This document shows, piece by piece, positions 7,026 to 61,292 of a stretch of 64,000 nucleotides of DNA (position 1 is the stretch's first letter; each line of letters opens with the position of its first letter). The stretch lies in NCBI GenBank assembly GCA_016214145.1, contig JACRPA010000002.1, positions 930,001 through 994,000 of the forward strand, in the 5' to 3' direction. A program made the translations under genes and the position numbers. The notes beneath the pieces are model-generated. The model did not search any database. It worked only from the letters and a program-made list of their open reading frames with translations, and had not been told where the DNA came from. The stretch is from Rhodocyclales bacterium. GTDB taxonomy: Bacteria; Pseudomonadota; Gammaproteobacteria; Burkholderiales; Rhodocyclaceae.

Positions 7026-8099
7026 ATGTCGCAGAAGAACATAAAGGGGCTGTCGCTGGTCTGCCACTGGAGCACGGGCGAGCGGCCGTCGCAGCCGGAG
7101 GAGGCGCGGCTGCTCGGCCTGCTCGAACGCATCCGGCTGGGCGGCTCGATCGCCGCGGCGGCGCGCGAGGCGGGCATCTCCTACCGCAATGCCTGGGGCC
7201 TGCTGGCGCGCTGGGAAGCCCGCTTCGGCCACCCCCTGCTGATTCCGGCGCGCGGCCTCGGCACCCGCCTGACGCCCTTCGCCGCGCGGCTGCTCGAACT
7301 GGACGTACAGATCCGCGACCTGCTGGCGCCGCATCTGGCAGCTGCCGCAGAACAGATGGCGCAGGGACTGGCCGAGGCTGTCGCTCCCGCGCGGGCAGTA
7401 CCGCGCATCCACGCCAGCCATGACCTGGCGCTGGCGCTGCTGCCCGCGCGCATGGCGAAGCTGGGACAGCCTGCCGATCTGCAATTCCATGGCAGTCTGG
7501 AAAGCCTCGCTTCCTTCGCCGAGGGCCGCTGCGAGATCGCCGGCTTTCATTGCCCGGAGGGCGCCGTCGGCGCGACCTTGTGGCAGCAATACAAACCTTA
7601 TCTCAGGCCGCGGCAGCAAGCGTTGATCCGGCTGGCAAAGCGCACCCAGGGCATCATGGTCGCGCCCGGCAATCCGAAGAAGCTGCGCGGCATCCGCGAC
7701 CTGACGCGGCCAGGCGTGCGTTTCCTCAACCGCCAGAGCGGCGCCGGCACGCGACTGCTGCTCGACTGGATGCTGCGGGAAAACGGCATCGCGGCGCGGA
7801 CCATCGCCGGCTACGGCGACGTGGAACTGACGCATTCCGCCGTGGCGGCAATGATCGCCAGCGGCCATGCCGACGCCGGGCTCGGCGTGGAAGCGGCGGC
7901 GCGCCAGTTCGATCTCGGCTTCGTGCCGCTGCTGAAGGAGGATTATTTTCTCGTCACACGGCGGGAGCTTCTGCGCCAGCCGGCCTTCGTGGCACTGGTC
8001 GAGTTGCTCAAGGGAAACGCCTTCCGTGGCGCCGTGCGCGCCCTGTCGGGCTACGATCCGGCGGGCAGCGGTATGGAAGAGCCGTTCTACGGAGACTGA
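7026..8099 (+). CDS. one-component regulator: LysR/ModE-type HTH plus PBP-like ligand domain
   Basis: The 357-residue protein has an N-terminal winged helix (RLGGSIAAAAREAGISYRNAWGLLARWEARFG, about residues 37-68) like ModE/LysR. Its C-terminal half (about 130-340) resembles the periplasmic-binding-like domain found in molybdate-related regulators: QGIMVAPGNPKKLRGIRDL, FLNRQSGAGTRLLLD, AAMIASGHADAGLGVEAAA. It is divergent from the tupA unit, and two ATGCAA direct repeats spaced 16 bp (6944 and 6960) lie between them as possible operators. It probably senses an oxyanion or cofactor and controls tupA and/or the reductase operon. A copy of the dispersed 25-bp motif overlaps its stop. Confidence 0.82.
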   Translation: MSQKNIKGLSLVCHWSTGERPSQPEEARLLGLLERIRLGGSIAAAAREAGISYRNAWGLLARWEARFGHPLLIPARGLGTRLTPFAARLLELDVQIRDLLAPHLAAAAEQMAQGLAEAVAPARAVPRIHASHDLALALLPARMAKLGQPADLQFHGSLESLASFAEGRCEIAGFHCPEGAVGATLWQQYKPYLRPRQQALIRLAKRTQGIMVAPGNPKKLRGIRDLTRPGVRFLNRQSGAGTRLLLDWMLRENGIAARTIAGYGDVELTHSAVAAMIASGHADAGLGVEAAARQFDLGFVPLLKEDYFLVTRRELLRQPAFVALVELLKGNAFRGAVRALSGYDPAGSGMEEPFYGD

Positions 8100-8103
8100 C
8101 TTT
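8079..8103 (-). repeat. dispersed 25-bp motif, copy 1
   Basis: On the minus strand it reads AAAGTCAGTC, spacer TCCGTAGA, ACGGCTC (15 of the 17 fixed positions). It covers the stop codon of the HTH/PBP-like regulator and ends 2 bp before the convergent DUF192 gene. Confidence 0.7.
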
Positions 8104-8105
8104 GT

Positions 8106-8537
8106 TCAGCGGCCCGGCGGCGCCTTGTCGAGGCCGTTGATCTTCGCGCCGGCGGCAAGCCCGCGGCTTTTGAACCAGCCGGCGTTCATCTCCAGGGCGA
8201 AACGCACCGGCTTGGCCGAACAGTGGTTGTCGAGCGACTGCGGCTGCATGTCGGCGATCTGCACGATGCGGCCGCTGTCGTCGATGAAGGCGATGCTGAG
8301 GGGGATCAGGGTGTTCTTCATCCAGAAGCACTGCACGCCGGGCTTGGGGAAGACGAACAGCATGCCGCGCTGCACGGGCATCGCGGGCCGGTTCATCAGG
8401 CCGGTGGCGCGGTCTCCCTGCGTGCTCGCCACCTCGGCCTCGATGCGGTGCATGCCGGCGGAGAGTTCGAGGGTCGGCGCGGCCAGCGCGGCGGCGCTCG
8501 TCAGCAGCAGGAAGAAAAAGAGGGACAGAGATTTCAT
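8106..8537 (-). CDS. exported DUF192 family protein
   Basis: The 143-residue protein has a clear signal peptide (LFFFLLLTSAAALAA) and the DUF192 core: EVASTQGDRATGLMNR, MLFVFPKPGVQCFWMKNT and LIPLSIAFID. The family is small, usually periplasmic or extracytoplasmic, and of unknown function. It is the last gene behind the cytochrome/Mo oxidoreductase operon, 12 bp after the chaperone gene. That placement may be incidental, since DUF192 genes occur widely. Confidence 0.88.
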   Translation of the reverse strand: MKSLSLFFFLLLTSAAALAAPTLELSAGMHRIEAEVASTQGDRATGLMNRPAMPVQRGMLFVFPKPGVQCFWMKNTLIPLSIAFIDDSGRIVQIADMQPQSLDNHCSAKPVRFALEMNAGWFKSRGLAAGAKINGLDKAPPGR

Positions 8538-8549
8538 CAGGGCGAGAGC

Positions 8550-9266
8550 TTACCAGCTTGGCGCCGCGCCCGGCATATAGGCGAGCGGCGCGGCTTCGAC
8601 ATGCCGCTGCGGCTTGAGGCGGGCCTCGATTTCCTCGCGCGTCGGCCGAGGTTCGCCGAGGCTTTCCGCGAGCAGATCGCGAAGTTGCTCGCACCAGGCA
8701 AAAGTCAGTCTCCCCAGCACGGCGAAGAAGGGCGTCTCGGCGCGTGCGGCAACACGCGCGGCGAAATCCGGCAGCCAGCGCAGCAGGTGCTCGTCCAGCA
8801 CGGCCGCCAGCCGGTGCAGATCATCGGCAGCGGAGCGACGCAGGGCATGGGCGATGTAGAGCAATTGCAGGACGAGATGATCGTCGGGGCGCTTGCGCCA
8901 GTCCGCCGCCGCCAGTCCCGCCGCGGCATAGATGCCGCGCAACGCAAACATGGCCTCCTGGCAGACGAGGTGGTCGTCGTCGGTCCACACCGACTCGCAG
9001 GGCGAGGCGCCATAGGCGCCGGTGAGGTAGATGGCCGCGTAGTCCGCCGCCAACAGGTCGATCTCGGGCGCATCGGTTTCCGCCAACGCGGCGGCCATCA
9101 GGCGCCAGGCCTCCTGCGAACATTCGCCGGCCGGCAGCAGGCCGAGGTTCGACGGAAAGCCGACTTTGCGCAGGGCGGCAATCGTTTCCGCCGTCAGTTC
9201 GCGGTCGTGCAGCGCCGCGAGCGCTTCAGCGTCTTCGGCCAGCGCTTGCGCCAGTTCGCGATTCAT
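8550..9266 (-). CDS. TorD/DmsD-family redox-enzyme maturation chaperone
   Basis: The 238-residue protein is rich in alpha helix. It has DLLAADYAAIYLTGAYGASPCESVW followed by VLQLLYIAHAL and a late WLPDFAARVAARAETPFFAVLG, the pattern of TorD/NarJ-type chaperones that bind Tat signals and help insert the molybdenum cofactor. The start at 9266 (MNRELAQALAED) excludes an odd upstream extension. It lies 154 bp after the ferredoxin subunit gene and should serve the DmsA-like subunit. A copy of the dispersed motif lies within it. Confidence 0.85.
   Translation of the reverse strand: MNRELAQALAEDAEALAALHDRELTAETIAALRKVGFPSNLGLLPAGECSQEAWRLMAAALAETDAPEIDLLAADYAAIYLTGAYGASPCESVWTDDDHLVCQEAMFALRGIYAAAGLAAADWRKRPDDHLVLQLLYIAHALRRSAADDLHRLAAVLDEHLLRWLPDFAARVAARAETPFFAVLGRLTFAWCEQLRDLLAESLGEPRPTREEIEARLKPQRHVEAAPLAYMPGAAPSW
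8701..8725 (+). repeat. dispersed 25-bp motif, copy 2
   Basis: AAAGTCAGTC, spacer TCCCCAGC, ACGGCGA: all 17 fixed positions match. It is inside the TorD-like gene, antisense to it, and is translated there as AVLGRLTF. Confidence 0.85.
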
Positions 9267-9420
9267 AGGACGCAGTCCGGCCGCCTGGCCGCCCCAAGGC
9301 CGGACGGAGCGCCGCAGGAGGCGGCATCCATCCAGCGATAACCACGAAGCGCCCCGTAATACACGAGCGAAGCGAGCACGCAGACTTCCCCCCGAGAGGA
9401 GGGATTGAGGGGGGTGAGTG

Positions 9421-10083
9421 TCATATTTTGCCCTTGCTGTGCGGCACAAAGACGATCGACGGGCCGGTCAGTTCCGGATTCGCCATGTTCTTCACCTGCC
9501 GCACGGGCTTCTCGTTCGGCCCCAGCGCGGTCGTCTTCCAGGTGCCGGCGGCCAGCTCGTCGATAGGCCCGATGTCGAGCACGCGCATCATGCAGGCCAT
9601 GACGCAGTAGGGCTTGCGCCCTGCCTCCAGTTCGTCGATGCACATATTGCACTTCTTGACGATCTGTTCCTTCGGATCCCACTGCGGCGCGCCGTAGGGG
9701 CAGGCCGCCTCGCAGCGGCGGCAGCCGATGCACAGCGTGGAATCGATATCCACCACGCCGTTGTCCGCCCGCTTCCAGATCGCGCCGGAAGGACAGGCCG
9801 GCAGACAGGCCGGCTCGGCGCAGTGGTTGCACGACATGTTCACCTTGTAGGCGTACACGTCCGGGAAAGTGCCGCCTTCGACATACATGACGCGGCGGAA
9901 GCGCGGCCCGGGCGGCAGGCCGTTCTTGTCCTTGCAGGCGATCTCGCAGGCGCGGCAGCCGATGCAGTCGACGTTGTGGTGGATGAAGCCGAGCTGGGTC
10001 TTCGGCTGAACCGGCCGAGTGGTCTGTGCAACCTTGCGCTGCAATGCTTTCTTGACTTCCTGGCGGTCGAGTTTATTGGCCAC
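9421..10083 (-). CDS. four-cluster ferredoxin subunit of a DMSO-reductase-family enzyme
   Basis: The roughly 220-residue protein has four cysteine groups: CIGCRACEIAC, CNHCAEPACLPACP, CIGCRRCEAACP and CNMC with CVMAC. This is the DmsB/PhsB-type electron-transfer subunit with four [4Fe-4S] clusters. It carries electrons between the catalytic subunit and the membrane-side partner. The GTG at 10083, 1 bp after the catalytic gene stop, is preferred over an ATG at 10131 that would overlap by 47 bp. It has no Tat signal, so it should be exported with the catalytic subunit. Confidence 0.92.
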   Translation of the reverse strand: MANKLDRQEVKKALQRKVAQTTRPVQPKTQLGFIHHNVDCIGCRACEIACKDKNGLPPGPRFRRVMYVEGGTFPDVYAYKVNMSCNHCAEPACLPACPSGAIWKRADNGVVDIDSTLCIGCRRCEAACPYGAPQWDPKEQIVKKCNMCIDELEAGRKPYCVMACMMRVLDIGPIDELAAGTWKTTALGPNEKPVRQVKNMANPELTGPSIVFVPHSKGKI

Positions 10084-10084
10084 T

Positions 10085-21610: not shown

Positions 21611-21635
21611 CCGCCGTATCACGGAGACTGACATT
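21611..21635 (-). repeat. dispersed 25-bp motif, copy 3
   Basis: On the minus strand AATGTCAGTC, spacer TCCGTGAT, ACGGCGG (15 of 17 fixed positions), 13 bp after the rraA stop. Confidence 0.7.
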
Positions 21636-24896: not shown

Positions 24897-25090
24897 AAAG
24901 TCAGTCCCTGTGATACGGCGATATATCAAGGCAGGGCGTGTGCTTTCGGCCAGGAGCGGCCTTGTAGGTCGGGCTTCAGCCCGACTTGAGCGCCCGAGCA
25001 ACCGCCGCTGTCGGCCTGAAGGCCGACCTACAGACAAACGGCCGCAACGGGCACATAGCACTCCTTCGCCGTACTGGCGAGACTGACTTT
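24897..25090. repeat. 194-bp MITE-like unit bounded by inverted copies of the dispersed motif (copies 4 and 5)
   Basis: The left end (24897-24921) reads AAAGTCAGTC, CCTGTGAT, ACGGCGA. The right end (25066-25090), on the other strand, reads AAAGTCAGTC, TCGCCAGT, ACGGCGA. Similarity extends outward as CAGGA on both sides. The inside holds a REP-like doublet and no open frame. A miniature inverted-repeat element is one reading; chance pairing of two motif copies is another. Confidence 0.5.
24963..25032. repeat. REP-like palindromic doublet
   Basis: Two perfect hairpins, GTCGGGCT/AGCCCGAC (24968-24985) and GTCGGCCT/AGGCCGAC (25010-25027), are bracketed by TGTAGGTCGG and its complement. The TGTAGGTCGGGCTT... 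type is a common extragenic repeat in proteobacteria. Confidence 0.75.
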
Positions 25091-25123
25091 TCCTGGACGA
25101 TTCGAGCCCCCAAGCGGTTTTCC

Positions 25124-25148
25124 TCGCCGTATCGCAGGGACTGACTTT
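25124..25148 (-). repeat. dispersed 25-bp motif, copy 6
   Basis: On the minus strand AAAGTCAGTC, spacer CCTGCGAT, ACGGCGA: all 17 fixed positions match. It is intergenic, 33 bp beyond copy 5 and in the same orientation. Confidence 0.85.
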
Positions 25149-33689: not shown

Positions 33690-34520
33690 ATGACCGCACG
33701 CAGACTCATCGCCCTTTTCCTTTTCGGCCTCGCCTCGACCGGCACGCTCGCCGCGCCCGAGCAGCACGAGGGCGTCGTTGTCGGCAAGCCCTCGGCGGTG
33801 CGCAAGCTGGTGCCGGCCGAAGGCCTCGAGCGGCAGGCCACCCAGGAATTCTCCCAACTCAAACAGCAGGCCGCGGCGAAAAAGGCGCTGGCGCCGGACG
33901 ACCATCCGCAGACGCGGCGCCTGCGCCAGATCGCCAACCGCATCATTCCCTACGCAGCCCGCTTCAATCCGCGCGCGCAGCAATGGCAGTGGGAAGTCAT
34001 CCTGATCGGTGCGCCGCCGGTCAACGCCTTCTGCATGCCCGGCGGCAAGATCGCCGTCTTCAGCGGACTGCTGCTCGGCCTGCAACTGACGGACGACGAG
34101 GCGGCGGTGGTCATGGGTCACGAGATCGCCCACGCCCTGCGCGAGCACGCCCGCGAGCGCATCGCCAAGAGCGAGCTGACGCGGCTGGGCGCCAACCTGC
34201 TCGGCGAGTTCGTCGGCCGCGGCAAGTACACGGGCCTGTTCGACATGGGCGGCCAGCTGATGTCCCTCAAGTTCTCGCGCGACGACGAGACGGAGGCCGA
34301 CACCGTCGGGCTGGAACTGGCCGCGCGCGCCGGCTACGATCCGCGCGCCGGCGTGACGCTGTGGAACAAGATGATGGCGGCCAACAAGGGCGCGCCGCCG
34401 CAGTGGCTGTCGACGCACCCTTCCGGCAACAACCGCATCCGCGAAATCGAGAGCCACCTGCCCGAGGTCATGCCGCTCTACGAACGGGCGCGCCTCTCCG
34501 CACAAAGTCAGTCCCGGTAG
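33690..34520 (+). CDS. exported M48-family metalloprotease
   Basis: The 276-residue protein has a signal peptide (LIALFLFGLASTGTLAA) and an M48 protease domain with the zinc motif HEIAHALREH (H in HExxH) and the downstream DDETEADTVGLELAARAGYDP, which holds the third ligand. NAFCMPGGKIAVFSGLL is also typical. It resembles the periplasmic YcaL/LoiP/BepA group without TPR repeats, probably acting in envelope quality control. Its last codons and stop lie within a copy of the dispersed motif. Confidence 0.9.
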   Translation: MTARRLIALFLFGLASTGTLAAPEQHEGVVVGKPSAVRKLVPAEGLERQATQEFSQLKQQAAAKKALAPDDHPQTRRLRQIANRIIPYAARFNPRAQQWQWEVILIGAPPVNAFCMPGGKIAVFSGLLLGLQLTDDEAAVVMGHEIAHALREHARERIAKSELTRLGANLLGEFVGRGKYTGLFDMGGQLMSLKFSRDDETEADTVGLELAARAGYDPRAGVTLWNKMMAANKGAPPQWLSTHPSGNNRIREIESHLPEVMPLYERARLSAQSQSR

Positions 34521-34528
34521 TACGGCGA
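34504..34528 (+). repeat. dispersed 25-bp motif, copy 7
   Basis: AAAGTCAGTC, spacer CCGGTAGT, ACGGCGA: all 17 fixed positions match. The M48 stop codon TAG lies within the spacer. Confidence 0.85.
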
Positions 34529-36290: not shown

Positions 36291-36985
36291 TCCGCGCCAT
36301 CGCCTTCGATGCCTACGGCACGTTGTTCGACGTGTATTCCGTCGGCGCGCTCGCCGAGCAACTCTTTCCCGGCAAGGGATCTGAACTCACCGCCCTGTGG
36401 CGCAGCACCCAGATCGGCTACACGCACATCCGCACGCTGTCGGATCGCTACGTACCCTTCTGGCAGGTGACGGAAGACGCGCTGGTCTTCTCCGCGCGCA
36501 AGCTGGGGCTCGATCTGACGGAGGACGGACGCAGGCGCCTGATGAGCCAGTACACCTGCCTCTCCGCCTTCCCGGAAAACCTCGGTGCACTGAAGGAACT
36601 GAAACAGCTCGGCCTGCCGCTGGCCATCCTCTCCAACGGCACGCCAGAGATGCTCGACATCGCCGTCAAGAGTGCCGGCATGAGCGGCCTCTTCGACCAC
36701 CTGCTGTCGGTCGAGGCGGTGAAGAAATACAAGACCACGCCCGAGGCCTACCGGCTCGGGCCGGATGCCTTCAAGCTCCCCACGAGGGAGATTCTCTTCG
36801 TCTCGTCGAACTGCTGGGACGCCATCGGCGCCACCTGGTTCGGCTACACGACTTTCTGGATCAACCGCAGCGGCCAGCCGCTGGAGGAACTGGGCGTGCA
36901 ACCCACCGCCCAGGGCCGATTGCTGACCGATGTGGTTTCGTACGTGAACAATTCGCTCAAAAATTCAATCAAGGAGCCATCATGA
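36287..36985 (+). CDS. HAD hydrolase, (S)-2-haloacid dehalogenase type
   Basis: The 232-residue protein has the HAD motifs FDAYGTLFDV (nucleophile Asp8), LSNGTPEML, VKKYKTTPEAY (lysine) and SSNCWDAIGA. The YGTL, LWR, LSNG and SSNxWD set is that of L-2-haloacid dehalogenases, which yield 2-hydroxyacids such as glycolate. In this operon with hyi and aceB, real substrates might be haloacetates or a related C2 compound; that is inference. Overlaps of 4 bp occur on both sides. Confidence 0.87.
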   Translation: MIRAIAFDAYGTLFDVYSVGALAEQLFPGKGSELTALWRSTQIGYTHIRTLSDRYVPFWQVTEDALVFSARKLGLDLTEDGRRRLMSQYTCLSAFPENLGALKELKQLGLPLAILSNGTPEMLDIAVKSAGMSGLFDHLLSVEAVKKYKTTPEAYRLGPDAFKLPTREILFVSSNCWDAIGATWFGYTTFWINRSGQPLEELGVQPTAQGRLLTDVVSYVNNSLKNSIKEPS

Positions 36986-38580
36986 GCCTCAACCTCCCCT
37001 CAGGCGTGCAGATCAACGCGCCGATCCATCCCCGCTTCGACGAAATCCTCACGCCCGAGGCGCTGGCCTTCGTCGCCAAACTGCACCGCGCCTTCGAGAC
37101 GCGCCGCAAGGAACTGCTGAAGAAGCGCATCGAGCGCCAGGCGCGCATCGACGCCGGCGAGATGCCGGACTTCCTGCCCGAGACGAAGCACATCCGCGAG
37201 GGCGACTGGAAGGTCGCGCCGCTGCCGAAGGCGCTGGCGTGCCGCCGCGTCGAGATCACCGGCCCGGTGGAAGCCAAGATGATCATCAACGCCTTCAACT
37301 CCGGGGCGGACTCCTACATGACCGACTTCGAGGATTCCAACAGCCCGAACTGGTTCAACCAGGTGCAGGGCCAGGTGAACCTCTACGACGCCGTGCGCCG
37401 CAGACTGACTTTCACCAACGAGGCCGGCAAGGCCTACAAGCTCAACGACAAGATCGCCGTCATGCAGATCCGCCCGCGCGGCTGGCATCTCGACGAGAAG
37501 CATGTGCTGGTCGATGGCCAGCGCGTCTCCGGCGGCATCTTCGACTTCGGCCTGGTGTTCTTCCACAACGCCAAGGAGCAGATCGCCCGCGGCGCCGGCC
37601 CCTTCTACTACCTGCCGAAGATGGAATCGCACCTCGAGGCGCGCCTGTGGAACGACATCTTCTGCATGGCGCAGGACGAGATCGGCCTGCCGCGCGGCAG
37701 CATCAAGGCCACCGTGCTGGTCGAGACCATCCTCGCCACCTTCGAACTGGAAGAGATTCTCTACGAACTGCGCGAGCATTCCGCCGGCCTCAACGCCGGG
37801 CGCTGGGACTACATTTTCTCCTGCATCAAGAAATTCAAGAAGAACAAGGATTTCTGCCTGGCCAACCGCGGCGCCATTACCATGGAAGTGCCCTTCATGC
37901 GCAGCTACGCGCTGGCGCTGGTGAAGGCCTGCCACAAGCGCGGCGCGCCGGCCATCGGCGGCATGAGCGCGCTGATCCCGATCAAGAACGATCCTGTCGC
38001 CAACGAAAAGGCGATGGCCGCCATCCGCCACGACAAGACGCGCGACGCCAACGACGGCTACGACGGCGGCTGGGTCGCCCATCCGGGCCTCGTCTCCATC
38101 GCCATGGAAGAGTTCGTCAAGGTGCTCGGCGACCGGCCCAACCAGTGGGAGAAGCAGCGCAGCGACACCTACGGCCCGAAGGACTGGCTCAACTTCCAGC
38201 CCGAGCAGCCCATCACCGAAGCCGGCGTGCGCAACAACATCAACGTCGGCATCCACTACCTCGGCTCCTGGCTGGCCGGCAACGGCTGCGTGCCGATCCA
38301 CAACCTGATGGAGGACGCCGCCACCGCCGAGATTTCGCGCTCGCAGATCTGGCAGTGGGTGGTCAGCCCGAAGGGCAAGCTCGACGATGGCCGCAAGGTC
38401 ACCGCCGAGATGGTCAAGGGCCTCATCGTCGAGGAACTCGCCAAGGTCAAGGCCACCGTCTCCGCCGCCGGCGAAAAGACGGAGACCTACGACCAGGCCG
38501 CGGGCATTTTCGAGAAGATGAGCCTGTCGCCCGACTACCCGGAGTTCCTCACCCTGCCGCTGTACGAGGCAATGGAGTAA
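36982..38580 (+). CDS. aceB: malate synthase A
   Basis: The 532-residue enzyme condenses glyoxylate with acetyl-CoA to malate. Signatures include DFEDSNSPNW, IMQIRPRGWHLDEKHV-like text (VMQIRPRGWHL), PKMESHLEARLWNDIF, KATVLVETILA, GRWDYIFSCIKKF and HKRGAPAIGGMSALIP. It is last of the hyi-HAD-aceB unit, with AAGGAG before the ATG and ATGA overlap with the HAD gene. aceA is 14 kb away. Copies of the dispersed motif occur within it (37388) and over its stop (38579). Confidence 0.96.
   Translation: MSLNLPSGVQINAPIHPRFDEILTPEALAFVAKLHRAFETRRKELLKKRIERQARIDAGEMPDFLPETKHIREGDWKVAPLPKALACRRVEITGPVEAKMIINAFNSGADSYMTDFEDSNSPNWFNQVQGQVNLYDAVRRRLTFTNEAGKAYKLNDKIAVMQIRPRGWHLDEKHVLVDGQRVSGGIFDFGLVFFHNAKEQIARGAGPFYYLPKMESHLEARLWNDIFCMAQDEIGLPRGSIKATVLVETILATFELEEILYELREHSAGLNAGRWDYIFSCIKKFKKNKDFCLANRGAITMEVPFMRSYALALVKACHKRGAPAIGGMSALIPIKNDPVANEKAMAAIRHDKTRDANDGYDGGWVAHPGLVSIAMEEFVKVLGDRPNQWEKQRSDTYGPKDWLNFQPEQPITEAGVRNNINVGIHYLGSWLAGNGCVPIHNLMEDAATAEISRSQIWQWVVSPKGKLDDGRKVTAEMVKGLIVEELAKVKATVSAAGEKTETYDQAAGIFEKMSLSPDYPEFLTLPLYEAME
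37388..37412 (-). repeat. dispersed 25-bp motif, copy 8
   Basis: On the minus strand AAAGTCAGTC, spacer TGCGGCGC, ACGGCGT (16 of 17 fixed positions). It is inside aceB, where the sense strand encodes DAVRRRLTF. Chance similarity in a coding region is possible for this copy. Confidence 0.55.
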
Positions 38581-38617
38581 AGTCAGTCCCTGCAACACGG
38601 CGCCCCGCGGGGCGCCG
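38579..38617 (+). repeat. dispersed 25-bp motif, copy 9, fused to a GC hairpin
   Basis: AAAGTCAGTC, spacer CCTGCAAC, ACGGCGC (16 of 17) starts within the aceB stop TAA. Its 3' end merges with a perfect 9-bp hairpin (CGGCGCCCC/GGGGCGCCG, 38598-38617) followed by a weak T-rich stretch, which may act as the aceB terminator. Confidence 0.75.
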
Positions 38618-40159: not shown

Positions 40160-40405
40160 ATGAACAACCCCGACATCCCGCAGAAAGCCCCCTACGCCGT
40201 GGACGTGGAGGCCGGCAAGAGCTACTGGTGGTGCGCCTGCGGCAAAAGCAAAAGTCAGCCCCTGTGCGACGGCTCGCACAAGGGCACGGCCTTCACGCCC
40301 GTCGAATACAAGGCGGAGAAATCGGAAAAGGTGTGGTTCTGCGGCTGCAAGCACTCGGCGAACAAGCCGCTGTGCGACGGGACACACAAGAAGCTGCCTG
40401 ATTAG
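40160..40405 (+). CDS. tandem CDGSH iron-sulfur protein
   Basis: The 81-residue protein has two CDGSH motifs: CACGKSKSQPLCDGSH (about residues 25-40) and CGCKHSANKPLCDGTH (about 61-76). Each should bind a [2Fe-2S] cluster through three cysteines and one histidine. Bacterial tandem proteins of this kind are probably electron or cluster carriers. An IscR-type operator upstream supports a link to Fe-S homeostasis. The coding sequence at 40251 is similar to the dispersed motif. Confidence 0.93.
   Translation: MNNPDIPQKAPYAVDVEAGKSYWWCACGKSKSQPLCDGSHKGTAFTPVEYKAEKSEKVWFCGCKHSANKPLCDGTHKKLPD
40251..40275 (+). repeat. possible degenerate dispersed motif, copy 10
   Basis: AAAGTCAGCC, spacer CCTGTGCG, ACGGCTC (14 of 17 fixed positions). 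It encodes the conserved CDGSH motif, so similarity may be accidental. Confidence 0.3.
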
Positions 40406-45632: not shown

Positions 45633-46406
45633 TCAGAAAGCGCCGATGCCGACTGTCAGCATGCTGAAGGAACCCCTGTCGATGCCCTCGACCGGGAAGC
45701 TCACCGGCTCGTCCTCCTGCTGCGTCGCGATGCAATACAGCAGGGGCAGGTAATGCTCGGGCGTCGGCACCGCCAGGCGCGTCTGCGCATCGAGCCGCTC
45801 CCAATCGACCAGCGCTGCATGGTCGCGGCGGAGCAGACGATCCTTGACGGCCTGTTCGAAACGCAGCGCCCAGTCATAGGCGGCATCCGGCGCATCCCAC
45901 CGGAGCATGCCGAGGTTGTGCACGACGTTGCCGCTGCCCAGGATCAGCACGCCCTCGTCACGCAGCGCGGCGAGGCGCGCGCCTGTTTCGTAATGGAATT
46001 GCGCGGACTGCCTGTTGTCGATGCTGAGTTGCACGACGGGGATGTCCGCCGCCGGAAACAAGTGCGCCAGCACCGACCAGGCGCCGTGATCGATCCCCCA
46101 GCCGTCATCCGCTGTCGCAAGAGGATGCAACAGCGCCCGCACGCGATCCGCCAGCGCCGGGCTGCCCGGGGCGGGATAGCGGAAAGCGAAGAGTTCCTGC
46201 GGGAAGCCGTAAAAATCGTGGATCGTTCTCGGCGCCGCCATCGCCGTGACGGCGGCGCCGCGGATATACCAGTGCGCCGACACCACCAGCACCGCGGCGG
46301 GGCGTGGCAGCGCCTGACCGATGCGCCGCCAGGCGGCGGTGAAACGATTCTCCTCCAGCGTGTTCATCGGACTGCCGTGCCCGATGAACAACGCCGGCAT
46401 GGTCAT
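45633..46406 (-). CDS. ygiD: LigB-type extradiol dioxygenase (4,5-DOPA dioxygenase family)
   Basis: The 257-residue protein starts PALFIGHGSPMNTLEENRF, with the metal-binding H-G-S-P-M motif, and continues with VVSAHWYIRGAAVT, WGIDHGAWSVLAHLFP and ILGSGNVVHNLG, all signatures of YgiD/DODA. The physiological substrate in bacteria is not settled. It overlaps the SCO gene by 4 bp, so the two are co-expressed. Confidence 0.9.
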   Translation of the reverse strand: MTMPALFIGHGSPMNTLEENRFTAAWRRIGQALPRPAAVLVVSAHWYIRGAAVTAMAAPRTIHDFYGFPQELFAFRYPAPGSPALADRVRALLHPLATADDGWGIDHGAWSVLAHLFPAADIPVVQLSIDNRQSAQFHYETGARLAALRDEGVLILGSGNVVHNLGMLRWDAPDAAYDWALRFEQAVKDRLLRRDHAALVDWERLDAQTRLAVPTPEHYLPLLYCIATQQEDEPVSFPVEGIDRGSFSMLTVGIGAF

Positions 46407-47296
46407 TGCCTGTTCGGCAGCTGGCGCGAGCCGCCCTCCTGCATCAGCGCGTCGATCCGCTCCGCCACCTGCTGCGCCGGCGTGGCATAGGCGAAGCGGA
46501 CCACGGCGCGCCCGTCCGGGCCGAGGAGAATCATGCCGGCGGAGTGGTCGACGGTATAGCTGCCGGCGGGGGCGGCGGGATCGCGCACCTTCTCGTAGCG
46601 CACCCTGAACTCGGCGGCGGCGCGGCGCGTCAGATCCTCGGAGCCGCGCAGGCCGAGAATGCGCGGATCGAAGGCTGCGGTGTACTCGCGCAGCACCTGG
46701 GCGCTGTCGCGCTCGGGATCGACCGTGATGAAAATCGACTGCAGCTGAGCAGCCTTGTCACCGAGGTGTTTCAGCACCTCCTTCATTTCCAGCAGCGTGG
46801 TCGGGCAGACATCCGGGCAGGAGGTGTAACCGAAGCTGATCAGCTGGAAGCGGCCGAGGAAGTCCTCGTTCGTCACCGCCCGGCCGTTGGGATCCTGCAG
46901 GAGATAGCGCGGCACGACAGTATTCGGCGCGGTCTCCGCCGGGCTGTGTCCCTGCGGCACCTGGCCGGGCGCCGGCAGCGCCGTCTTCAGGCGCTGCGTC
47001 ACCGACTCAAGCTTCCTGGCCAGTTCGGCCGGTGGCGGACAAGGCATGCCTTTGCCGTGCGCGACGAAGGACTCCTGCGTGCCTTCCTCGTAGGCCTCGC
47101 CATAGACCCGCGTCTTCGGCGCGTGGTTGAGCATGAGAATTCGCACCCAGGCGGCGCTGTCCTTCTGGCCGCAGGCGAGCGCCTGGCCGTTGAGGCGCCC
47201 CAGGTCGCGCACGGCGGCGAGGCCGGCTTCATCGGAGGCAAAAGCCATGGCGGAAAAAGTCAGTCCCCACAGCACGGCGAGGAGTTTATCGCGCAT
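46403..47296 (-). CDS. SCO1/SenC-type protein with N-terminal extra domain
   Basis: The 297-residue exported protein has a signal peptide (LLAVLWGLTFSAMAFA) and a domain of about 90 residues (LGRLNGQALACGQKDSAAW, VYGEAYEEGTQESFVAHG) of unknown type. A SCO domain follows with copper ligands in SFGYTSCPDVCPTTLLEM and DHSAGMILLGPDG. SCO proteins deliver copper to cytochrome oxidase or act as thiol reductases. The fusion of the first domain is unusual. The signal peptide is encoded partly by a copy of the dispersed motif. Confidence 0.88.
   Translation of the reverse strand: MRDKLLAVLWGLTFSAMAFASDEAGLAAVRDLGRLNGQALACGQKDSAAWVRILMLNHAPKTRVYGEAYEEGTQESFVAHGKGMPCPPPAELARKLESVTQRLKTALPAPGQVPQGHSPAETAPNTVVPRYLLQDPNGRAVTNEDFLGRFQLISFGYTSCPDVCPTTLLEMKEVLKHLGDKAAQLQSIFITVDPERDSAQVLREYTAAFDPRILGLRGSEDLTRRAAAEFRVRYEKVRDPAAPAGSYTVDHSAGMILLGPDGRAVVRFAYATPAQQVAERIDALMQEGGSRQLPNRQ
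47256..47280 (+). repeat. dispersed 25-bp motif, copy 11
   Basis: AAAGTCAGTC, spacer CCCACAGC, ACGGCGA: all 17 fixed positions match. It is antisense to the SCO gene and encodes AVLWGLTF of its signal peptide. Confidence 0.85.
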
Positions 47297-53238: not shown

Positions 53239-53245
53239 GGGACTC

Positions 53246-55488: not shown

Positions 55489-55491
55489 CCT

Positions 55492-56419: not shown

Positions 56420-56455
56420 GCGCGGCTTTGCTAAATCCGAATTCTGGAGCACAAC

Positions 56456-56689: not shown

Positions 56690-56700
56690 GGAGACCTGCC

Positions 56701-56859
56701 ATGCCCCGCGAAAAAATCAAACTGGAAAGCACGGCCGGCACCGGCCATTTCTACACGACGACCAAGAACAAGCGCACCAAGCCCGAGAAGCTGGAGATCA
56801 AGAAGTTCGATCCCAAGGCGCGCAAGCACGTCCTGTACAAGGAAACCAAGCTGAAGTAA
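56701..56859 (+). CDS. rpmG: 50S ribosomal protein L33
   Basis: A 52-codon gene starts [20 protein letters not shown] and ends with [11 protein letters not shown]. It lacks the two CxxC zinc motifs, so it is the zinc-independent (C-minus) form. An AAGGAG ribosome site lies 8 bp before the ATG. Confidence 0.97.
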
Positions 56860-56869
56860 GCCCCCTTCA

Positions 56870-56909
56870 GCCAATAAAAAACCCGCCGCCCGGCGGGTTT
56901 TTTATTGGC
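56870..56909. terminator. bidirectional terminator after rpmG
   Basis: CCCGCCG/CGGCGGG stem with A6 and T6 flanks; pairing extends outward to GCCAAT/ATTGGC. It lies between rpmG and the convergent desaturase gene. Confidence 0.93.
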
Positions 56910-56920
56910 TGAATCGGCGG

Positions 56921-58093
56921 CTACAGGGCGTAGCTGCGCAGCCGCAGGGAAAACTCCTCCAGCTGCCGGATGCCGCTCGCCTCGGCGCGCCGGCACCAGT
57001 CCTGCAGGCGGGCGATCAGCTCCTCATGCGTTGCCGTGGAGCGCTGCCACAGTTCGGTCAGTTCGCGCCGCATCTCGACCCCCAGCGACAGGCGGCTGCT
57101 TTGTTCGAGCGCCGCTACGTAGCGCTGCCGTTCCTGTTCGGGAAGCTCCTCGGCGTCGCGCGCCAGCCAGCGCTTGAGCGCCCTGAGAGATTTGGCATCC
57201 AGCGAGACCTTCAGTTTTTGCGCTTCCTCGCGATAGATCTGCCGCAGCGACTTCATGTACTTCGCCATGACGTCGTAGCGGTGCGTGATGATCGCCTGCA
57301 GGTTGTCGAGGTCGACGGTCGGGCGCGCCGCGGTCAGGCGCGGCGTCGGCGCGACCTTCTTCACCCTGGCCTGGCCGAGCATTTCCAGCAGGCGGATGTA
57401 GAACCAGCCGATGTCGAACTCGTACCACTTGTTCGACAGCCGGGCCGAGGTGGCATAGGCATGGTGATTGTTGTGCAGCTCCTCGCCGCCGACGAGGATG
57501 CCCCAGGGCACGATGTTGGTGCTGGCGTCGGAACAGGCGAAATTGCGGTAACCCCAGAAATGGCCGATGCCGTTGATGACGCCGGCCGCCCAGAACGGGA
57601 TCCAGACCATCTGCACGCCCCAGATCAGCGCGCCCGGCATGAGGCCGAACAGGACGAGGTCGATGGCCAGCATCGCCAGGATGCCGAGCTTCTGCCCAGG
57701 GGTATAAACGCGGCGCTCCAGCCAGTCGTCCGGCGTGCCGTGGCCGTAGCGCTCCATCGTCTCGCGGTTGTGCGATTCCTTCACGTAGAGGAACACGCCG
57801 CCCCACAGCACGCGGTTGAGGCCCAGCACCTGCGGGCTGTGCGGATCGTCGGCCGTCTCGCATCGGGCGTGGTGCTTGCGGTGGATGGCGGCCCATTCCT
57901 TCGTCACCATGCCGGTGGTCAGCCACAGCCAGAAGCGGAAGAAATGGCTGGGCAGCGGCCCCAGGTCCAGCGCACGGTGCGCCTGGGCGCGGTGCAGGAA
58001 GATGGTGACGCCGGCGATGGTGATATGCGTCAAGGCCAGGGTGACGACGATGTAGCCCCACCATGGGAGATCGAACAACCCTGAGAACAGCAT
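56921..58093 (-). CDS. membrane fatty acid desaturase
   Basis: The 390-residue protein has four membrane helices and the three histidine boxes HRAQAH (about residues 34-39), HRKHH (about 71-75) and HNNHH (about 212-216) of acyl-CoA/acyl-lipid delta-9 desaturases. The C-terminal ~120 residues (YMKSLRQIYREEAQKLK, LEQSSRLSLGVEMRRELTELW) form a helical tail often found in bacterial DesA-like enzymes. It introduces double bonds to adjust membrane fluidity. Confidence 0.92.
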   Translation of the reverse strand: MLFSGLFDLPWWGYIVVTLALTHITIAGVTIFLHRAQAHRALDLGPLPSHFFRFWLWLTTGMVTKEWAAIHRKHHARCETADDPHSPQVLGLNRVLWGGVFLYVKESHNRETMERYGHGTPDDWLERRVYTPGQKLGILAMLAIDLVLFGLMPGALIWGVQMVWIPFWAAGVINGIGHFWGYRNFACSDASTNIVPWGILVGGEELHNNHHAYATSARLSNKWYEFDIGWFYIRLLEMLGQARVKKVAPTPRLTAARPTVDLDNLQAIITHRYDVMAKYMKSLRQIYREEAQKLKVSLDAKSLRALKRWLARDAEELPEQERQRYVAALEQSSRLSLGVEMRRELTELWQRSTATHEELIARLQDWCRRAEASGIRQLEEFSLRLRSYAL

Positions 58094-58193
58094 GGGCGAG
58101 CCCGGAAACGAGAGAGTGTCCGGATTCTACTTCAAACCTAAACAATCCAGTACCACAGACCCAACTTCTGGCACCAGAAGCGGCCGGACATTG

Positions 58194-59474
58194 CTATGAC
58201 CGGGGAAGCTCGCTTGCGTTCAGCACGCGCACTTCCTGCCGCGGATAGGGGATTTCAATGCCCTCCTGGCGGAACGCGCGCCAGATGTCGACACCGATGT
58301 CCGACTTGATGTTGAGGCTGCCCTCCTGCGGGTCGGCGATCCAGAAGCCGAGTTCCAGTTCGATGCCGGAGTCGGCGAAGCGCACCAGGTAGGCCTTCGG
58401 CGCCGGTTCGGCCAGCACGCGCGGATGGCGCCGCGCCGCCTCGACGAGGAGGGCCATGGCGCGCTCGGGGTCGCCGGCATAGCCGACCTGCACGGTGAGG
58501 GCGAGGCGCACGCGCGGATTGGTGTAGGTCTCGTTCTGCACCACCGAGCCGATCAACACGTCGTTCGGCACGATGGCCTCCACGCCGTTGTTGCCGCGCA
58601 GGACGGTGTAGCGCGTGGTGATCTGCGTCACTTCGCCGCTGACCTTGTCCACGGAGATGACGTTGCCGAGGCGGATCGAGCGGTCGAGCAGGATGATGAA
58701 GCCGGAGACATAGTTGCTGGCGATCTTCTGCAGGCCGAAGCCGATGCCCACGCCGAGCGCGCCGCCGAATACCGACAGGGCCGTCAGGTCGATGCCCACC
58801 AGCGGCAGGCTGATCAGCACCGCCAGCAGGATCAGCAGCGCCTTCGACAGCCGGGCGAAGACCAGGCGCAGGTTGCCGTCGATCGAGTCCGCCTTCAGCA
58901 GGCGCGCCTCGATCAGGCCGCCGCCCCACAGGGCCAGCAGCAGCGTGACGAGCACGGTCACGACACCCTGCAGCAGCAGCCACAGGGAGAGCCGCTGTTT
59001 GCCGACGCTGAAGCCGACCGATTCCAGCGCACCGATCAGTTCCGGCAGCAGGCCGAGGATGTGCAGCGCGACGACGCTCCACACCGTCAGGGCCAGCATG
59101 CGCTCGAAGGCCGCCAGCCAGCCGGACGGGGCGAAGGCCTGGCGCAGCGCGAACATCACGGCGCGGATGACGGCGAAGGAGCCGAGCAGCGGCAGCGCCA
59201 CATTGAGCAGGTTCACGTGGTGCCATTGCCGCAACACCAGCCGCGCCAGCAGCACCAGACCGAGCGCGAAGAGCGGGAAGAGAATGCGGTTCAATCCCCT
59301 GTGGCCGGTGCGCCAGGCGCCCTCGATGACCGTCGGCTCGCGCCGCAGGGCGCGCGCCGCCAGCCAGGCCAGGCCCAGGCAGAAGCCCAGCGTGGCAACC
59401 TGCCACAGCATGTCGGGCTGCTGCAGGTCGCTCCACAGATCGCTCAGAAGATGGCCGATTTCGTTTTTCTGCAT
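58194..59474 (-). CDS. MscS-family mechanosensitive channel
   Basis: The 426-residue protein has about five or six membrane helices. The pore helix VFGGALGVGIGFGLQKIASN is followed by YVSGFIILLDRSIRLGNVISV and the beta domain (TTRYTVLRGNNGVEAIVPND) typical of MscS. It is larger than MscS (286 residues), like the YbdG/YnaI types. It releases solutes under osmotic downshock. It lies 1 bp after the PLD gene. Confidence 0.9.
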   Translation of the reverse strand: MQKNEIGHLLSDLWSDLQQPDMLWQVATLGFCLGLAWLAARALRREPTVIEGAWRTGHRGLNRILFPLFALGLVLLARLVLRQWHHVNLLNVALPLLGSFAVIRAVMFALRQAFAPSGWLAAFERMLALTVWSVVALHILGLLPELIGALESVGFSVGKQRLSLWLLLQGVVTVLVTLLLALWGGGLIEARLLKADSIDGNLRLVFARLSKALLILLAVLISLPLVGIDLTALSVFGGALGVGIGFGLQKIASNYVSGFIILLDRSIRLGNVISVDKVSGEVTQITTRYTVLRGNNGVEAIVPNDVLIGSVVQNETYTNPRVRLALTVQVGYAGDPERAMALLVEAARRHPRVLAEPAPKAYLVRFADSGIELELGFWIADPQEGSLNIKSDIGVDIWRAFRQEGIEIPYPRQEVRVLNASELPRS

Positions 59475-59475
59475 G

Positions 59476-60051
59476 TCAGTCCGTCAATATCGCCTCGGCG
59501 TAGGGCACGGCCTCGGCGCGATGGCGTTTCCAGTTGTCGAGATAGGCGCGCAGCACCGGCGGATTGCCGCGCAGGATCACCACGTTCTCCGCATTGCGCG
59601 TCCGTGCCGAGTACGTGAAGTTGTAGGAGCCGGTCACCACCGCCCCGCCGGCGTCCGCCGCGTCGACGAGGACAATTTTATTATGCGCGGCGGCATAGCG
59701 CACCTCCAGCGCGACGGGAATGCCCGCCGCGACGAGCAGCGGGATCTGGCTGTTCTCGCCGCGAGCCGTCTGTTCGCGGTCGGCCAGCACTTCGACATGC
59801 ACGCCGCGCGCCTTCGCCTCGATCAGCGCGGCGGCGAGCGTGCGGCTGGTGAGCAGGTAGGCCTGCACGTGGATGCTGTGGCGCGCGCCGCGCAGCACGC
59901 GCAGGATGGCCGCCTCGATGTCGTCGTGCGGGCTGAACAGGATTTCAACCGTGCCCTGCGCGGCATGCGCCGTGGCCGGGCGCGGATCGAAGGCCGCGAC
60001 CGGCTGCGCCAGCAGCAAAGTCAGTCCCGCCAGCACGGCGGCCCATCTCAT
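59476..60051 (-). CDS. exported phospholipase D-like nuclease
   Basis: The 191-residue protein has a signal peptide (AVLAGLTLLLAQPVAA) and one HKD motif, HNKIVLVDAADAGGAVVTGSYNFT, preceded by HSIHVQAYLLTSRTLAAAL. Single-motif members such as Nuc/EndA act as dimers on nucleic acids or phosphodiesters. The ATG at 60051 is used; a GTG at 60075 overlapping the sufS stop is possible. A dispersed motif encodes part of the signal peptide. Confidence 0.85.
   Translation of the reverse strand: MRWAAVLAGLTLLLAQPVAAFDPRPATAHAAQGTVEILFSPHDDIEAAILRVLRGARHSIHVQAYLLTSRTLAAALIEAKARGVHVEVLADREQTARGENSQIPLLVAAGIPVALEVRYAAAHNKIVLVDAADAGGAVVTGSYNFTYSARTRNAENVVILRGNPPVLRAYLDNWKRHRAEAVPYAEAILTD
60017..60041 (+). 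repeat. dispersed 25-bp motif, copy 12
   Basis: AAAGTCAGTC, spacer CCGCCAGC, ACGGCGG (16 of 17 fixed positions). It is antisense to the PLD gene and encodes AVLAGLTL of its signal peptide. Confidence 0.8.
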
Positions 60052-60071
60052 CCCACAGGGCTTTCCTTCGG

Positions 60072-61286
60072 TCACCGGCGCACCGCCCGCAGCGCCTCGA
60101 TCAGCTGGTCGACATCCTCGCGGTTGTTGTAGAGGGCGAAGGAGGCGCGCGCCGTGCCCTCGACGCCGAAGCGGCGCATCGCCGGCAGGGCGCAATGGTG
60201 GCCGCTGCGCACCGCCACGCCGTGCCGGTCGAGGACCGTGCCGACCTCCTGCGCCGTGAAGCCGTCGACGACGAAGGACAGAATGGCGCCCTTCTCCCGC
60301 GCCGTGCCGATGACGCGCAGGCCGTCGATCTCGCCCACCCGCGCCGTCGCGTAGTCCAGCAGCGCCGCCTCGTGTTCGCCGATGGCGGCCATGCCGATGC
60401 GTTCCACGTAATCGAGCGCCGCGGCGAGACCGACCGCCCCCTCCACGTTCGGCGTGCCGGCCTCGTACTTGCGCGGCGGCGCGTCGTATTCCGTGCGCTC
60501 GAAGGTGACGTCGCGGATCATGTGGCCGCCGCCCTGGTACGGCGGCAGCCGCGCCAGCCACTCGGCCTTGCCGTAGAGCACGCCGATGCCCATCGGCGCG
60601 TACAGCTTGTGGCCGGAGAAGGCGTAGAAGTCGCAGTCCAGCGCCTGCACGTCGACCGCCGCATGGGCGACGGCCTGGGCGCCGTCCAGCAGCACCGGCA
60701 CGCCGGCGGCGTGGGCCCGCTCGACGATGCGCCGCACCGGCGTCACCGTGCCCAGCGCGTTGGAGACATGCGTCACCGCCACCAGGCGGGTGCGCGGCCC
60801 GATCAGTTTCTCGAACTCTTCGAAGAGGAATTCGCCGTCATCGCCGATCGGCACGACGCGCAGGCCGGCGCCGGCCTGCTCGCAGGCGATCTGCCAGGGC
60901 ACGATGTTGGAATGGTGCTCCATCGCCGAGACGACGATCTCGTCGCCGACGCGCAGGCAGGCGCGGCCGAAGGTGGCGGCGACGAGGTTGATGGCCTCGG
61001 TGGTGCCGCGCACGAAGACGATCTCGTCGGCTCGCGCGGCATTGACGAAGCGCCGCACCCGCTCGCGCGCCGCCTCGTACAGATCGGTGGCGCGGTCGCT
61101 GAGGAAATGCACGCCGCGGTGGGTGTTGGCGTTGTCCTCCAGGTAATAGCGACGCAGCGCCTCGATCACTTCATTCGGTTTCTGCGTCGTCGCCGCGCTG
61201 TCGAGGTAGGCCAGCCGCCGGCCGCGCACCAGCCGGGCGAGCAGCGGAAAGTCGTCGCGCAGCCGGGAAAAGTGAGTCCCCGTCAT
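60072..61286 (-). CDS. sufS: SufS-type cysteine desulfurase
   Basis: The 404-residue PLP enzyme removes sulfur from cysteine. AYLDSAATTQKP, NTHRGVHFLSDRATDLYE, EHHSNIVPWQ, FYAFSGHKLYAPMGIGVLYG (PLP lysine) and the active cysteine in VRSGHHCALPAMRRF place it in the SufS/CsdA group. None of sufBCD or sufE is nearby. It overlaps an FmdE-like gene at its start and a PLD gene at its end, an unusual operon. Confidence 0.93.
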   Translation of the reverse strand: MTGTHFSRLRDDFPLLARLVRGRRLAYLDSAATTQKPNEVIEALRRYYLEDNANTHRGVHFLSDRATDLYEAARERVRRFVNAARADEIVFVRGTTEAINLVAATFGRACLRVGDEIVVSAMEHHSNIVPWQIACEQAGAGLRVVPIGDDGEFLFEEFEKLIGPRTRLVAVTHVSNALGTVTPVRRIVERAHAAGVPVLLDGAQAVAHAAVDVQALDCDFYAFSGHKLYAPMGIGVLYGKAEWLARLPPYQGGGHMIRDVTFERTEYDAPPRKYEAGTPNVEGAVGLAAALDYVERIGMAAIGEHEAALLDYATARVGEIDGLRVIGTAREKGAILSFVVDGFTAQEVGTVLDRHGVAVRSGHHCALPAMRRFGVEGTARASFALYNNREDVDQLIEALRAVRR

Positions 61287-61292
61287 GCGGGG
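61268..61292 (+). repeat. possible degenerate dispersed motif, copy 13
   Basis: AAAGTGAGTC, spacer CCCGTCAT, GCGGGGC (13 of 17 fixed positions). It covers the start codon of sufS. It is listed because of its position; it may be chance. Confidence 0.25.

What the first reader, a model, noticed from the sequence alone, without database searches (positions are those of the whole stretch)
8079..61292. A dispersed bipartite 25-bp motif, AAAGTCAGTC-N8-ACGGCGA, occurs 11 to 13 times
Six copies match all 17 fixed positions (8701, 24897, 25066, 25124, 34504, 47256), three match 16 (37388, 38579, 60017), two match 15 (8079, 21611), and two are weak (40251, 61268). A 17-base match is expected about 7e-6 times by chance in 128,000 positions on two strands, so this is a real dispersed element. 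The 8-bp middle is not random but follows YC-NN-YRRY. Sites are over or just after stop codons (8079, 21611, 34504, 38579), in intergenic DNA (24897-25148), or inside genes. I do not recognise it as a known REP, uptake or replication motif.
Basis: seen in the sequence. Interest (0 to 1): 0.88.

Follow-up and report, generated by a model that had tools for sequence, protein, structure and literature searches.

The report
Possible new bacterial DNA-uptake signal
A rigid 25-letter DNA word is scattered hundreds of times through the genomes of one group of environmental bacteria, differs between genera as 'dialects', and resembles the self-recognition tags that a few other bacteria use when taking up DNA, though uptake has not been tested.

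Summary
The motif is real. The window holds 12 sites with up to 3 mismatches (0.09 expected); the 3.42-Mb genome holds 585 (reversed pattern 8), about equal on both strands. The window's genus includes Candidatus Desulfobacillus. Half-site spacing is rigid: 73 pairs at 8 bp, at most 1 at any other gap from 0 to 20.

Dialects of the word fill other genera of the same family (36 of 249 genomes, in 9 of 68 genera, have at least 50 copies; my count) and are nearly absent outside it. Copies lie in genes of several kinds, in five of six frames, with excess in intergenic DNA and over stop codons. Across three congeners the core is 92% identical, flanks 81-83%; third codon positions 93% against 71%. 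A protein motif, a polar replication signal or a REP/MITE fit poorly.

Best explanation: an uptake-sequence-like tag read by type IV pilus/competence machinery, convergent with Neisseriaceae DUS and Pasteurellaceae USS. Uptake was not tested, competence genes do not separate motif-rich from motif-poor genomes, and phage contigs carry one dialect. A chromosome-structure protein remains possible.

The parts
8079..8103 (-). motif copy, 2 mismatches, over the stop codon of a LysR/PBP-like regulator gene (7026-8099 +); a site with 1 mismatch in G001
8701..8725 (+). motif copy, exact, inside a nitrate-reductase-delta-like gene (8550-9266 -), encoding ..AVLGRLTF..; exact in G001 and G002 too, with flanks only about 75% identical
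21611..21635 (-). motif copy, 2 mismatches, intergenic, starting 12 bp after a called gene end; not kept in G001 or G002
24897..24921 (+). motif copy, exact, intergenic, one of three within 252 bp
25066..25090 (-). motif copy, exact, intergenic, inverted relative to 24897
25124..25148 (-). motif copy, exact, intergenic, inverted relative to 24897
34504..34528 (+). motif copy, exact, over the stop codon of an M48-peptidase-like gene (33690-34520 +); the word is present in G001, G002, G004, G005 and G008 with small alignment gaps in some, absent in the G013 locus
37388..37412 (-). motif copy, 1 mismatch, inside a malate synthase gene (36982-38580 +); kept in G002, G003, G004, G005, G007, G008, G011 and G012 loci, replaced by a sequence 6 bp shorter in G001, G010, G013 and G009
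38579..38603 (+). motif copy, 1 mismatch, over the stop codon of the malate synthase gene
40251..40275 (+). weak motif copy, 3 mismatches, in a small CDGSH zinc-finger gene; three orthologues have 3 or 4 mismatches
47256..47280 (+). motif copy, exact, at the start of an SCO1/SenC-like gene (46403-47296 -), encoding AVLWGLTF in its hydrophobic N-terminus; exact in G001, G002, G003, G007, G010 and G014 loci, absent in G006, G011 and G009 loci
60017..60041 (+). motif copy, 1 mismatch, at the start of a PLD-like gene (59476-60051 -), encoding AVLAGLT in its hydrophobic N-terminus; exact in G001
61269..61293 (+). near-site, 4 mismatches; the orthologous place in G001 is a site with 2 mismatches

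Best explanation
The motif is most likely a self-recognition tag for natural transformation, working like the DNA uptake sequence (DUS) of Neisseriaceae or the uptake signal sequence (USS) of Pasteurellaceae. A minor pilin of the type IV pilus would bind a 25-bp double-stranded site (AAAGTC[A/G]G..N..ACGGC[G/A]) on free DNA and favour its uptake. Recombination of the taken-up fragments would spread and maintain the word wherever the sequence tolerates it, so each lineage converges on one dialect. Shown: a rigid unit, hundreds of copies, no replication-strand bias in the one complete chromosome tested, constraint on the DNA word itself, and genome-wide dialects limited to one bacterial family.
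For: Copy number and strand balance: 585 sites against 8 for the reversed control. Rigid spacing: 73 pairs of AAAGTCAG and ACGGC at gap 8, at most 1 at any other gap of 0-20, and 59 of 63 AAAGTCAGT words continue with ACGGC at the right place in 444 kb. DNA-level constraint: core positions 1-24 identical in 2200 of 2384 cells (0.92), spacer 0.80, flanks 0.83 and 0.81 over 149 directed site pairs among G000, G001 and G002; third codon positions 204/220 in the core against 1688/2376 in the flanks, in the commonest coding frame, 24 sites. Published DUS behave alike, 97% against about 85% (PMC2397512, passages). Permissive placement: of 190 sites, 56 are intergenic (20.1 expected) and 14 lie over stop codons (3.5 expected). 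Dialects: g1 AAAGTCAGTC-N8-ACGGCGA; g9 AAAGTCGGTGCTGGCGGGACGGCG; g2, g35, g54 and g62 AAAGTCGGCGCTGGCGGGACGGC[G/A]. Even chromosomal spread, no two-arc strand bias in G002. Machinery present: ComEC above cut-off in 20 of 22 genomes, ComP_DUS pilin in 36 of 36, DprA above cut-off in 34 of 36.
Against: No uptake or binding was measured. Competence genes do not separate rich from poor genomes: the poor congener G009 has ComEC, a ComP_DUS-type pilin and DprA, and so do the motif-free genera tried. Motif-rich G016 gave no DprA match and G001 only a weak one. Phage contigs carry one dialect, whereas DUS are reported absent from recently acquired genes. My test of unaligned runs of 1.5 kb or more showed no depletion (per 10 kb, unaligned against aligned: G000 2.01/1.49, G001 1.60/1.67, G002 1.58/1.63), though most of that length is probably synteny breaks at sample edges. 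Close inverted pairs were rare: 2 of 7 pairs within 120 bp. Evidence that sites arise by substitution is modest: of 17 ungapped absent alleles, 8 have only 4 mismatches, just past my threshold.
Confidence: 0.64

Rival explanations
1. The motif is the binding site of a chromosome-organising, segregation or recombination protein (functionally like matS, SlmA sites, KOPS or Chi; these named from recall) that needs hundreds of sites spread over the chromosome.
For: Rigid 25-bp unit with strong DNA-level conservation; even spread over the G002 chromosome; conserved orthologous positions; presence in phage contigs as well.
Against: No replication-strand polarity in G002 (two-arc test p = 0.94). No regional clustering (10 bins of 6-13 exact sites). 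Patchy in the family, with near-empty relatives inside rich genera (G009 4 copies, G267 16, G271 0). Dialects differ at hundreds of sites together, which is hard for an essential chromosomal binding site.
Confidence: 0.19
2. The motif is a self tag used in defence or DNA processing other than uptake, for example a protection signal against a nuclease, which phages copy to pass as self.
For: The dialect AAAGTCGGYGCTGGCN3ACGGC occurs in at least 120 stretches of viral contigs; in the 79 of these examined the 92 exact copies lie in all six frames, among them portal, terminase and Mu-type transposase genes.
Against: Density in these loci is low: 131 sites of up to 3 mismatches in 737 kb although every locus was chosen for an exact copy, against 0.19-0.22 per kb in five motif-rich host samples. 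Temperate phages could gain copies with their hosts. I did not search for a linked nuclease or modification system.
Confidence: 0.1
3. The motif is a REP- or MITE-like mobile repeat, or the terminal repeat of one.
For: Two exact copies bound a 194-bp intergenic stretch in inverted orientation (24897 and 25066), and part of that stretch recurs at two other places of the genome, next to motif copies (L022/L393 and L024/L396). One intergenic absent allele is a 21-bp gap (G001 C1:1705117 against G000).
Against: Copies inside genes predominate (116 of 190). Of 149 directed orthologous pairs, 115 keep the word without a gap, 4 more keep it beside a gap, 17 lack it without a gap and 13 lack it with a gap, none of these a clean 25-bp insertion. 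Y1_Tnp genes do not track the motif.
Confidence: 0.05
4. The motif is a by-product of a conserved protein motif or of codon usage.
For: One frame dominates: 51 of 116 coding sites lie in the opposite-strand frame that reads AVxxxLT.
Against: Five of six frames are used and 74 of 190 sites are wholly or partly outside called genes; the hosting proteins in the window are unrelated; core third codon positions are far more conserved than flanking ones.
Confidence: 0.01

Closest known systems
DNA uptake sequence (DUS) of Neisseriaceae, read by minor pilin ComP
   Same: Hundreds to thousands of copies, dialects that follow the phylogeny, genic and intergenic, in permissive places, more conserved than the flanks, a stop codon in one reading frame (PMC3630211, PMC2397512 and PMC5031613, passages)
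   Different: DUS is a 12-nt word, reported absent from recently acquired genes, with inverted pairs in high numbers. Here the word is 25 bp, unrelated in sequence, about one per 6 kb, close inverted pairs are rare (2 of 7), and viral contigs carry one dialect
Uptake signal sequence (USS) of Pasteurellaceae
   Same: Core word with dialects, spread over the chromosome, suggested to evolve by point mutation in place (PMC1939737, passages)
   Different: 9-nt core AAGTGCGGT (PMC5031613, passage) with AT-rich flanks (recalled); here two blocks at fixed spacing, in a Betaproteobacterial family
REP/BIME and MITE repeats (recalled)
   Same: Dispersed, hundreds of copies, intergenic excess
   Different: No palindrome in the unit, mostly in genes, no clean insertion seen, no link to Y1_Tnp
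Polar chromosome motifs (KOPS, Chi; recalled)
   Same: Many copies of a short word over the chromosome
   Different: No strand polarity, much longer word, family-limited dialects

Membership tests
DNA uptake sequence / uptake signal sequence | Short word hugely over-represented in the whole genome | tested here: met
   585 against 8 control; top enriched 10-mer in samples of G000, G001 and G002, z 37-42
DNA uptake sequence / uptake signal sequence | Lineage-specific dialects shared across a family | tested here: met
   Dialects read in samples of g1, g9, g2, g35, g54, g62 and counted in whole genomes
DNA uptake sequence / uptake signal sequence | Word more conserved than its flanks at orthologous places | tested here: met
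   0.92 against 0.81-0.83; third codon positions 0.93 against 0.71
DNA uptake sequence / uptake signal sequence | Placed in permissive regions, genic and intergenic | tested here: met
   116 coding, 56 intergenic, 18 overlapping gene ends of 190; own gene caller
DNA uptake sequence / uptake signal sequence | Arises in place by substitution or recombination rather than insertion of a block | tested here: inconclusive
   Of 149 directed pairs 119 keep the word, 17 lack it without gap (8 of these with only 4 mismatches), 13 lack it with a gap; against G009 7 ungapped and 13 gapped of 20
DNA uptake sequence / uptake signal sequence | Rare in recently acquired DNA | tested here: inconclusive
   No depletion in unaligned runs, most of them probably synteny breaks; viral loci carry one dialect at lower density than hosts
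DNA uptake sequence / uptake signal sequence | Inverted pairs in high numbers at terminators | tested here: inconclusive
   2 of 7 pairs within 120 bp inverted, one an overlapping hairpin in L046; all loci fetched by then were scanned, with the g1 word only
DNA uptake sequence / uptake signal sequence | Competence machinery present | tested here: met
   ComEC 20 of 22 above cut-off, DprA 34 of 36, ComP_DUS pilin 36 of 36; present in motif-poor genomes too, so not discriminating
DNA uptake sequence / uptake signal sequence | Motif-dependent binding and uptake by competent cells | not testable with these tools
   Needs experiment
REP / MITE mobile repeat | Palindromic or inverted-repeat unit, mainly intergenic, inserted as a block | tested here: not met
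   116 of 190 in genes; no clean 25-bp insertion among 149 directed pairs, closest a 21-bp gap
REP / MITE mobile repeat | Cognate Y1/RAYT transposase in carriers | tested here: not met
   Y1_Tnp in 19 of 36, missing from motif-rich G001, G004, G011 and G068
Polar chromosome motif (KOPS, Chi) | Strand bias that switches at origin and terminus | tested here: not met
   95 exact sites in G002, best two-arc score 19, permutation mean 24.2, p 0.94

The most novel reading that the evidence does not exclude
A third, independently evolved self-specific DNA-uptake system, spread over at least nine genera of one Betaproteobacterial family, with a 25-bp word in at least three dialects, one of which also marks the DNA of phages.
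Probability: 0.57. Interest if true: 0.9.

Novelty: new member of a known kind. Interest (0 to 1): 0.8.

Why it matters
A 2016 review places sequence-specific DNA uptake in two bacterial families, Pasteurellaceae and Neisseriaceae (PMC5031613, passages); these are mostly host-associated (recalled). A third family, with environmental members such as Candidatus Desulfobacillus denitrificans of anammox reactors (PMC8402940, search listing with start of abstract), carrying its own dialects would show that self-tagging evolved again in free-living communities. It would give a new system for testing how uptake words arise, change and are lost, because near-empty relatives (G009, G267, G271) exist beside rich ones, and it would predict which of these bacteria exchange genes.

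Tried and rejected
Replication-strand polarity: the truncated list looked polar, but the complete exact list for G002 is mixed and the test is negative. REP/RAYT: no correlation. Protein motif: rejected. Loss of ComEC, DprA or the ComP_DUS-type pilin as the reason why G009 lacks the motif: not supported. Gene content of the minor-pilin locus: a crude signature search of 18 loci gave 1 to 6 open frames each, some clearly false, in rich and poor genomes, and singled out no receptor. First impression that intergenic copies avoid promoters: not borne out by the larger sample, 16 divergent sites against 5.0 expected. First impression that some g35 species lack the motif: G049, G109 and G186 carry copies ending in ACGGC without the final GA (ACGGCA seen for G049 and G109). 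Depletion in lineage-specific DNA: inconclusive. The g1 dialect in viral contigs (24 stretches) is about what I estimate for chance by a rough hand calculation, so I draw nothing from it. Literature: no paper for DNA uptake sequence with Rhodocyclaceae, uptake sequences with Rhodocyclales, a four-term Betaproteobacteria search, or Accumulibacter; Azoarcus gave two Neisseria papers, seen as listing with start of abstract. Four longer strings of the other dialects: no paper. AAAGTCAGTC: 36 papers, the 20 listed look unrelated by title. Searches list 43 and 39 papers on uptake sequences, of which I saw 15 and 12 in the listing and passages of PMC3630211, PMC12616744, PMC5031613, PMC5217627, PMC1939737 and PMC2397512. 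The library holds open-licence papers only.


Full report
Observation. The 13th candidate is at 61269, has 4 mismatches, and lies where congener G001 has a better site. In the whole genome (G000, 3.42 Mb, 12 contigs) there are 585 sites, 283 forward and 302 reverse, against 4 and 4 for the reversed pattern. In 444 kb of this genome the half-sites AAAGTCAG and ACGGC are found 73 times at the motif's spacing and at most once at each other gap from 0 to 20; 59 of 63 AAAGTCAGT words continue with ACGGC at the right place. It is therefore one rigid 25-bp unit, often with one more A in front (21 of 45 sites).

Who has it. In the genus, 15 congeners were searched with up to 2 mismatches: twelve have 223 to 541 copies, while G009 has 6, G012 26 and G013 55. 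In the same call one genome of another genus, G023 (g9), had 76 copies of a variant. A family-wide exact search for AAAGTCRGY-N9-ACGGC covered 249 genomes in 68 genera. By my count of its table, 36 genomes in 9 genera have at least 50 copies: g1 7 of 8 sampled, g2 7 of 8, g9 1 of 1, g35 7 of 8, g39 1 of 2, g54 1 of 1, g62 4 of 4, g80 7 of 7, g82 1 of 6. The other 213 range from 0 to 22, and the reversed control never exceeds 4. In an order-wide search of 399 genomes for the other dialect (up to 2 mismatches), no genome outside the family had more than 5. Some bins of other groups contain the motif (a Bacteroidia bin 49 copies, a Casimicrobiaceae bin 20); contamination is likely but I did not prove it.

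Dialects. Unsupervised 10-mer enrichment recovers the word as the top hit in samples of G000, G001 and G002 and finds a variant as the top hit in G023. Samples of G016 (g2), G068 (g54), G214 (g35) and G130 (g62) show a shared form, AAAGTCGGCGCTGGCGGGACGGC[G/A]; it gives the top 11-mer in G016, G068 and G214, while the top words of G130 and the top 9-mer of G016 were something else. Samples of four motif-free genera had no site of the other dialect with up to 3 mismatches, and no equally clear word of this kind emerged in them, G018 having repeats of another type. Dialects replace each other genome-wide: G000 has 4 sites for the other dialect pattern, while G049 and G109 have 212 and 376.

Constraint on the DNA word. 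Sites found in G000, G001 or G002 were aligned to the other two without choosing the target by its motif. Over 149 directed site pairs (most places counted in both directions), core positions 1-24 are identical in 2200 of 2384 cells (0.92), the spacer in 0.80, the flanks in 0.83 and 0.81. In the commonest coding frame (24 sites, 44 pairs), third codon positions are identical in 204 of 220 cells inside the core and 1688 of 2376 in the flanks. Against the motif-poor congener G009 (20 pairs) core identity is 0.62, below the flanks (0.80 and 0.82), and no site is kept. Neutral decay in G009 would bring the core to the flank level; a lower value suggests that many sites arose in the motif-rich lineage, though choosing sites by their motif also lowers it.

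Gain and loss. Of the 149 pairs, 115 keep a site without a gap and 4 more keep it beside a gap; 17 lack it without any gap and 13 lack it with a gap. The ungapped absent alleles have 4 to 11 mismatches in the 17 positions, but 8 of the 17 have only 4 and are weak sites just past the threshold; the other 9 (5 to 11 mismatches) are the real evidence for change in place, for example G001 C1:1757703 against G000. No gapped case is a clean 25-bp insertion; the nearest is a 21-bp gap at G001 C1:1705117. For DUS, divergence too high for point mutation was read as arrival by recombination (PMC2397512, passages), whereas gradual point mutation was argued elsewhere (PMC1939737, passages).

Placement. 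With my own gene caller on 1.06 Mb of three genomes (coding fraction 0.84, 0.92 and 0.88), 190 sites of up to 2 mismatches divide into 116 coding (162.6 expected from random places), 56 intergenic (20.1 expected), 14 over stop codons (3.5) and 4 over start codons (3.7). The intergenic excess is similar in convergent (12 against 4.1), divergent (16 against 5.0) and tandem (28 against 10.9) regions. Coding sites use five of the six frames; the unused one contains the stop codon TGA. In the window, two genic copies encode AVLWGLTF and AVLAGLT at the hydrophobic N-termini of an SCO1/SenC-like and a PLD-like protein, a tolerant place. The 95 exact sites in G002 are spread at random (spacing CV 0.98, random 0.99) and show no two-arc strand bias.

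Phages. I examined 79 of these loci: their 92 exact copies lie in all six frames of the longest open frame. Of 12 hosting open frames extracted, 10 were scanned: they include a portal protein, a terminase large subunit, a Mu-type transposase, two DNA methyltransferase-like proteins and one with no match. With up to 3 mismatches the 79 loci hold 131 sites in 737 kb, about 0.07 per kb beyond the one for which each locus was picked; motif-rich host samples hold 0.19-0.22 per kb. This fits temperate phages that share their hosts' gene pool, but does not exclude a self tag that phages copy. It is the main point that differs from published DUS.

Machinery. ComEC is above cut-off in 20 of 22 genomes, DprA in 34 of 36, and a pilin of Pfam family ComP_DUS in 36 of 36, in several genomes beside FimT-, PilV- and PilW-like genes (names from recall and sequence signature). 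They are present in motif-poor genomes too, so they show that the machinery exists, not that it reads the word.

Conclusion. Of the features that define uptake sequences and can be tested by sequence, five were met and three were inconclusive, with the points against listed above; the functional one could not be tested. The function is inferred. I place the uptake explanation at 0.64 and a chromosome-structure protein at 0.19. In the searches named under Tried and rejected I found no earlier report of this word.

Noticed in passing
window 24897-25148; L022 (= L393), L024 (= L396): An intergenic repeat containing GGCCGCAACGGGNNNATAGC lies next to motif copies at three distinct places of the genome (five fetched loci, two of them duplicates; L028 is the window's own); in the window it holds a strong inverted repeat at 24963-25032.
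   Followed up: partly
L046 2240-2272: Two exact motif copies overlap in opposite orientation and form 15-bp perfect hairpin arms with a 3-nt loop, reminiscent of the overlapping DUS pairs reported in Simonsiella (PMC3630211, passage).
   Followed up: partly
L296 883-2238: A viral contig with five exact copies of the other dialect, the first four 316 bp apart, in repeated sequence.
   Followed up: no
G001 C1:2879864 and G016: Motif-rich G001 has only a weak DprA match and G016 none; an assembly gap, a masked stretch or a real loss. The G001 stretches used contain 1001 N.
   Followed up: no
G289 (L073), G285 (L087), G286 (L091): Bins labelled Bacteroidia, Casimicrobiaceae and Azonexus hold 49, 20 and 11 motif copies; the motif might serve to detect contaminated metagenome bins.
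   Followed up: no
L209-L212 (G018 sample): A motif-free genus whose sample has very enriched words of its own (AACGTCGAGAA, GGCAACGACAC), probably a repetitive gene.
   Followed up: no
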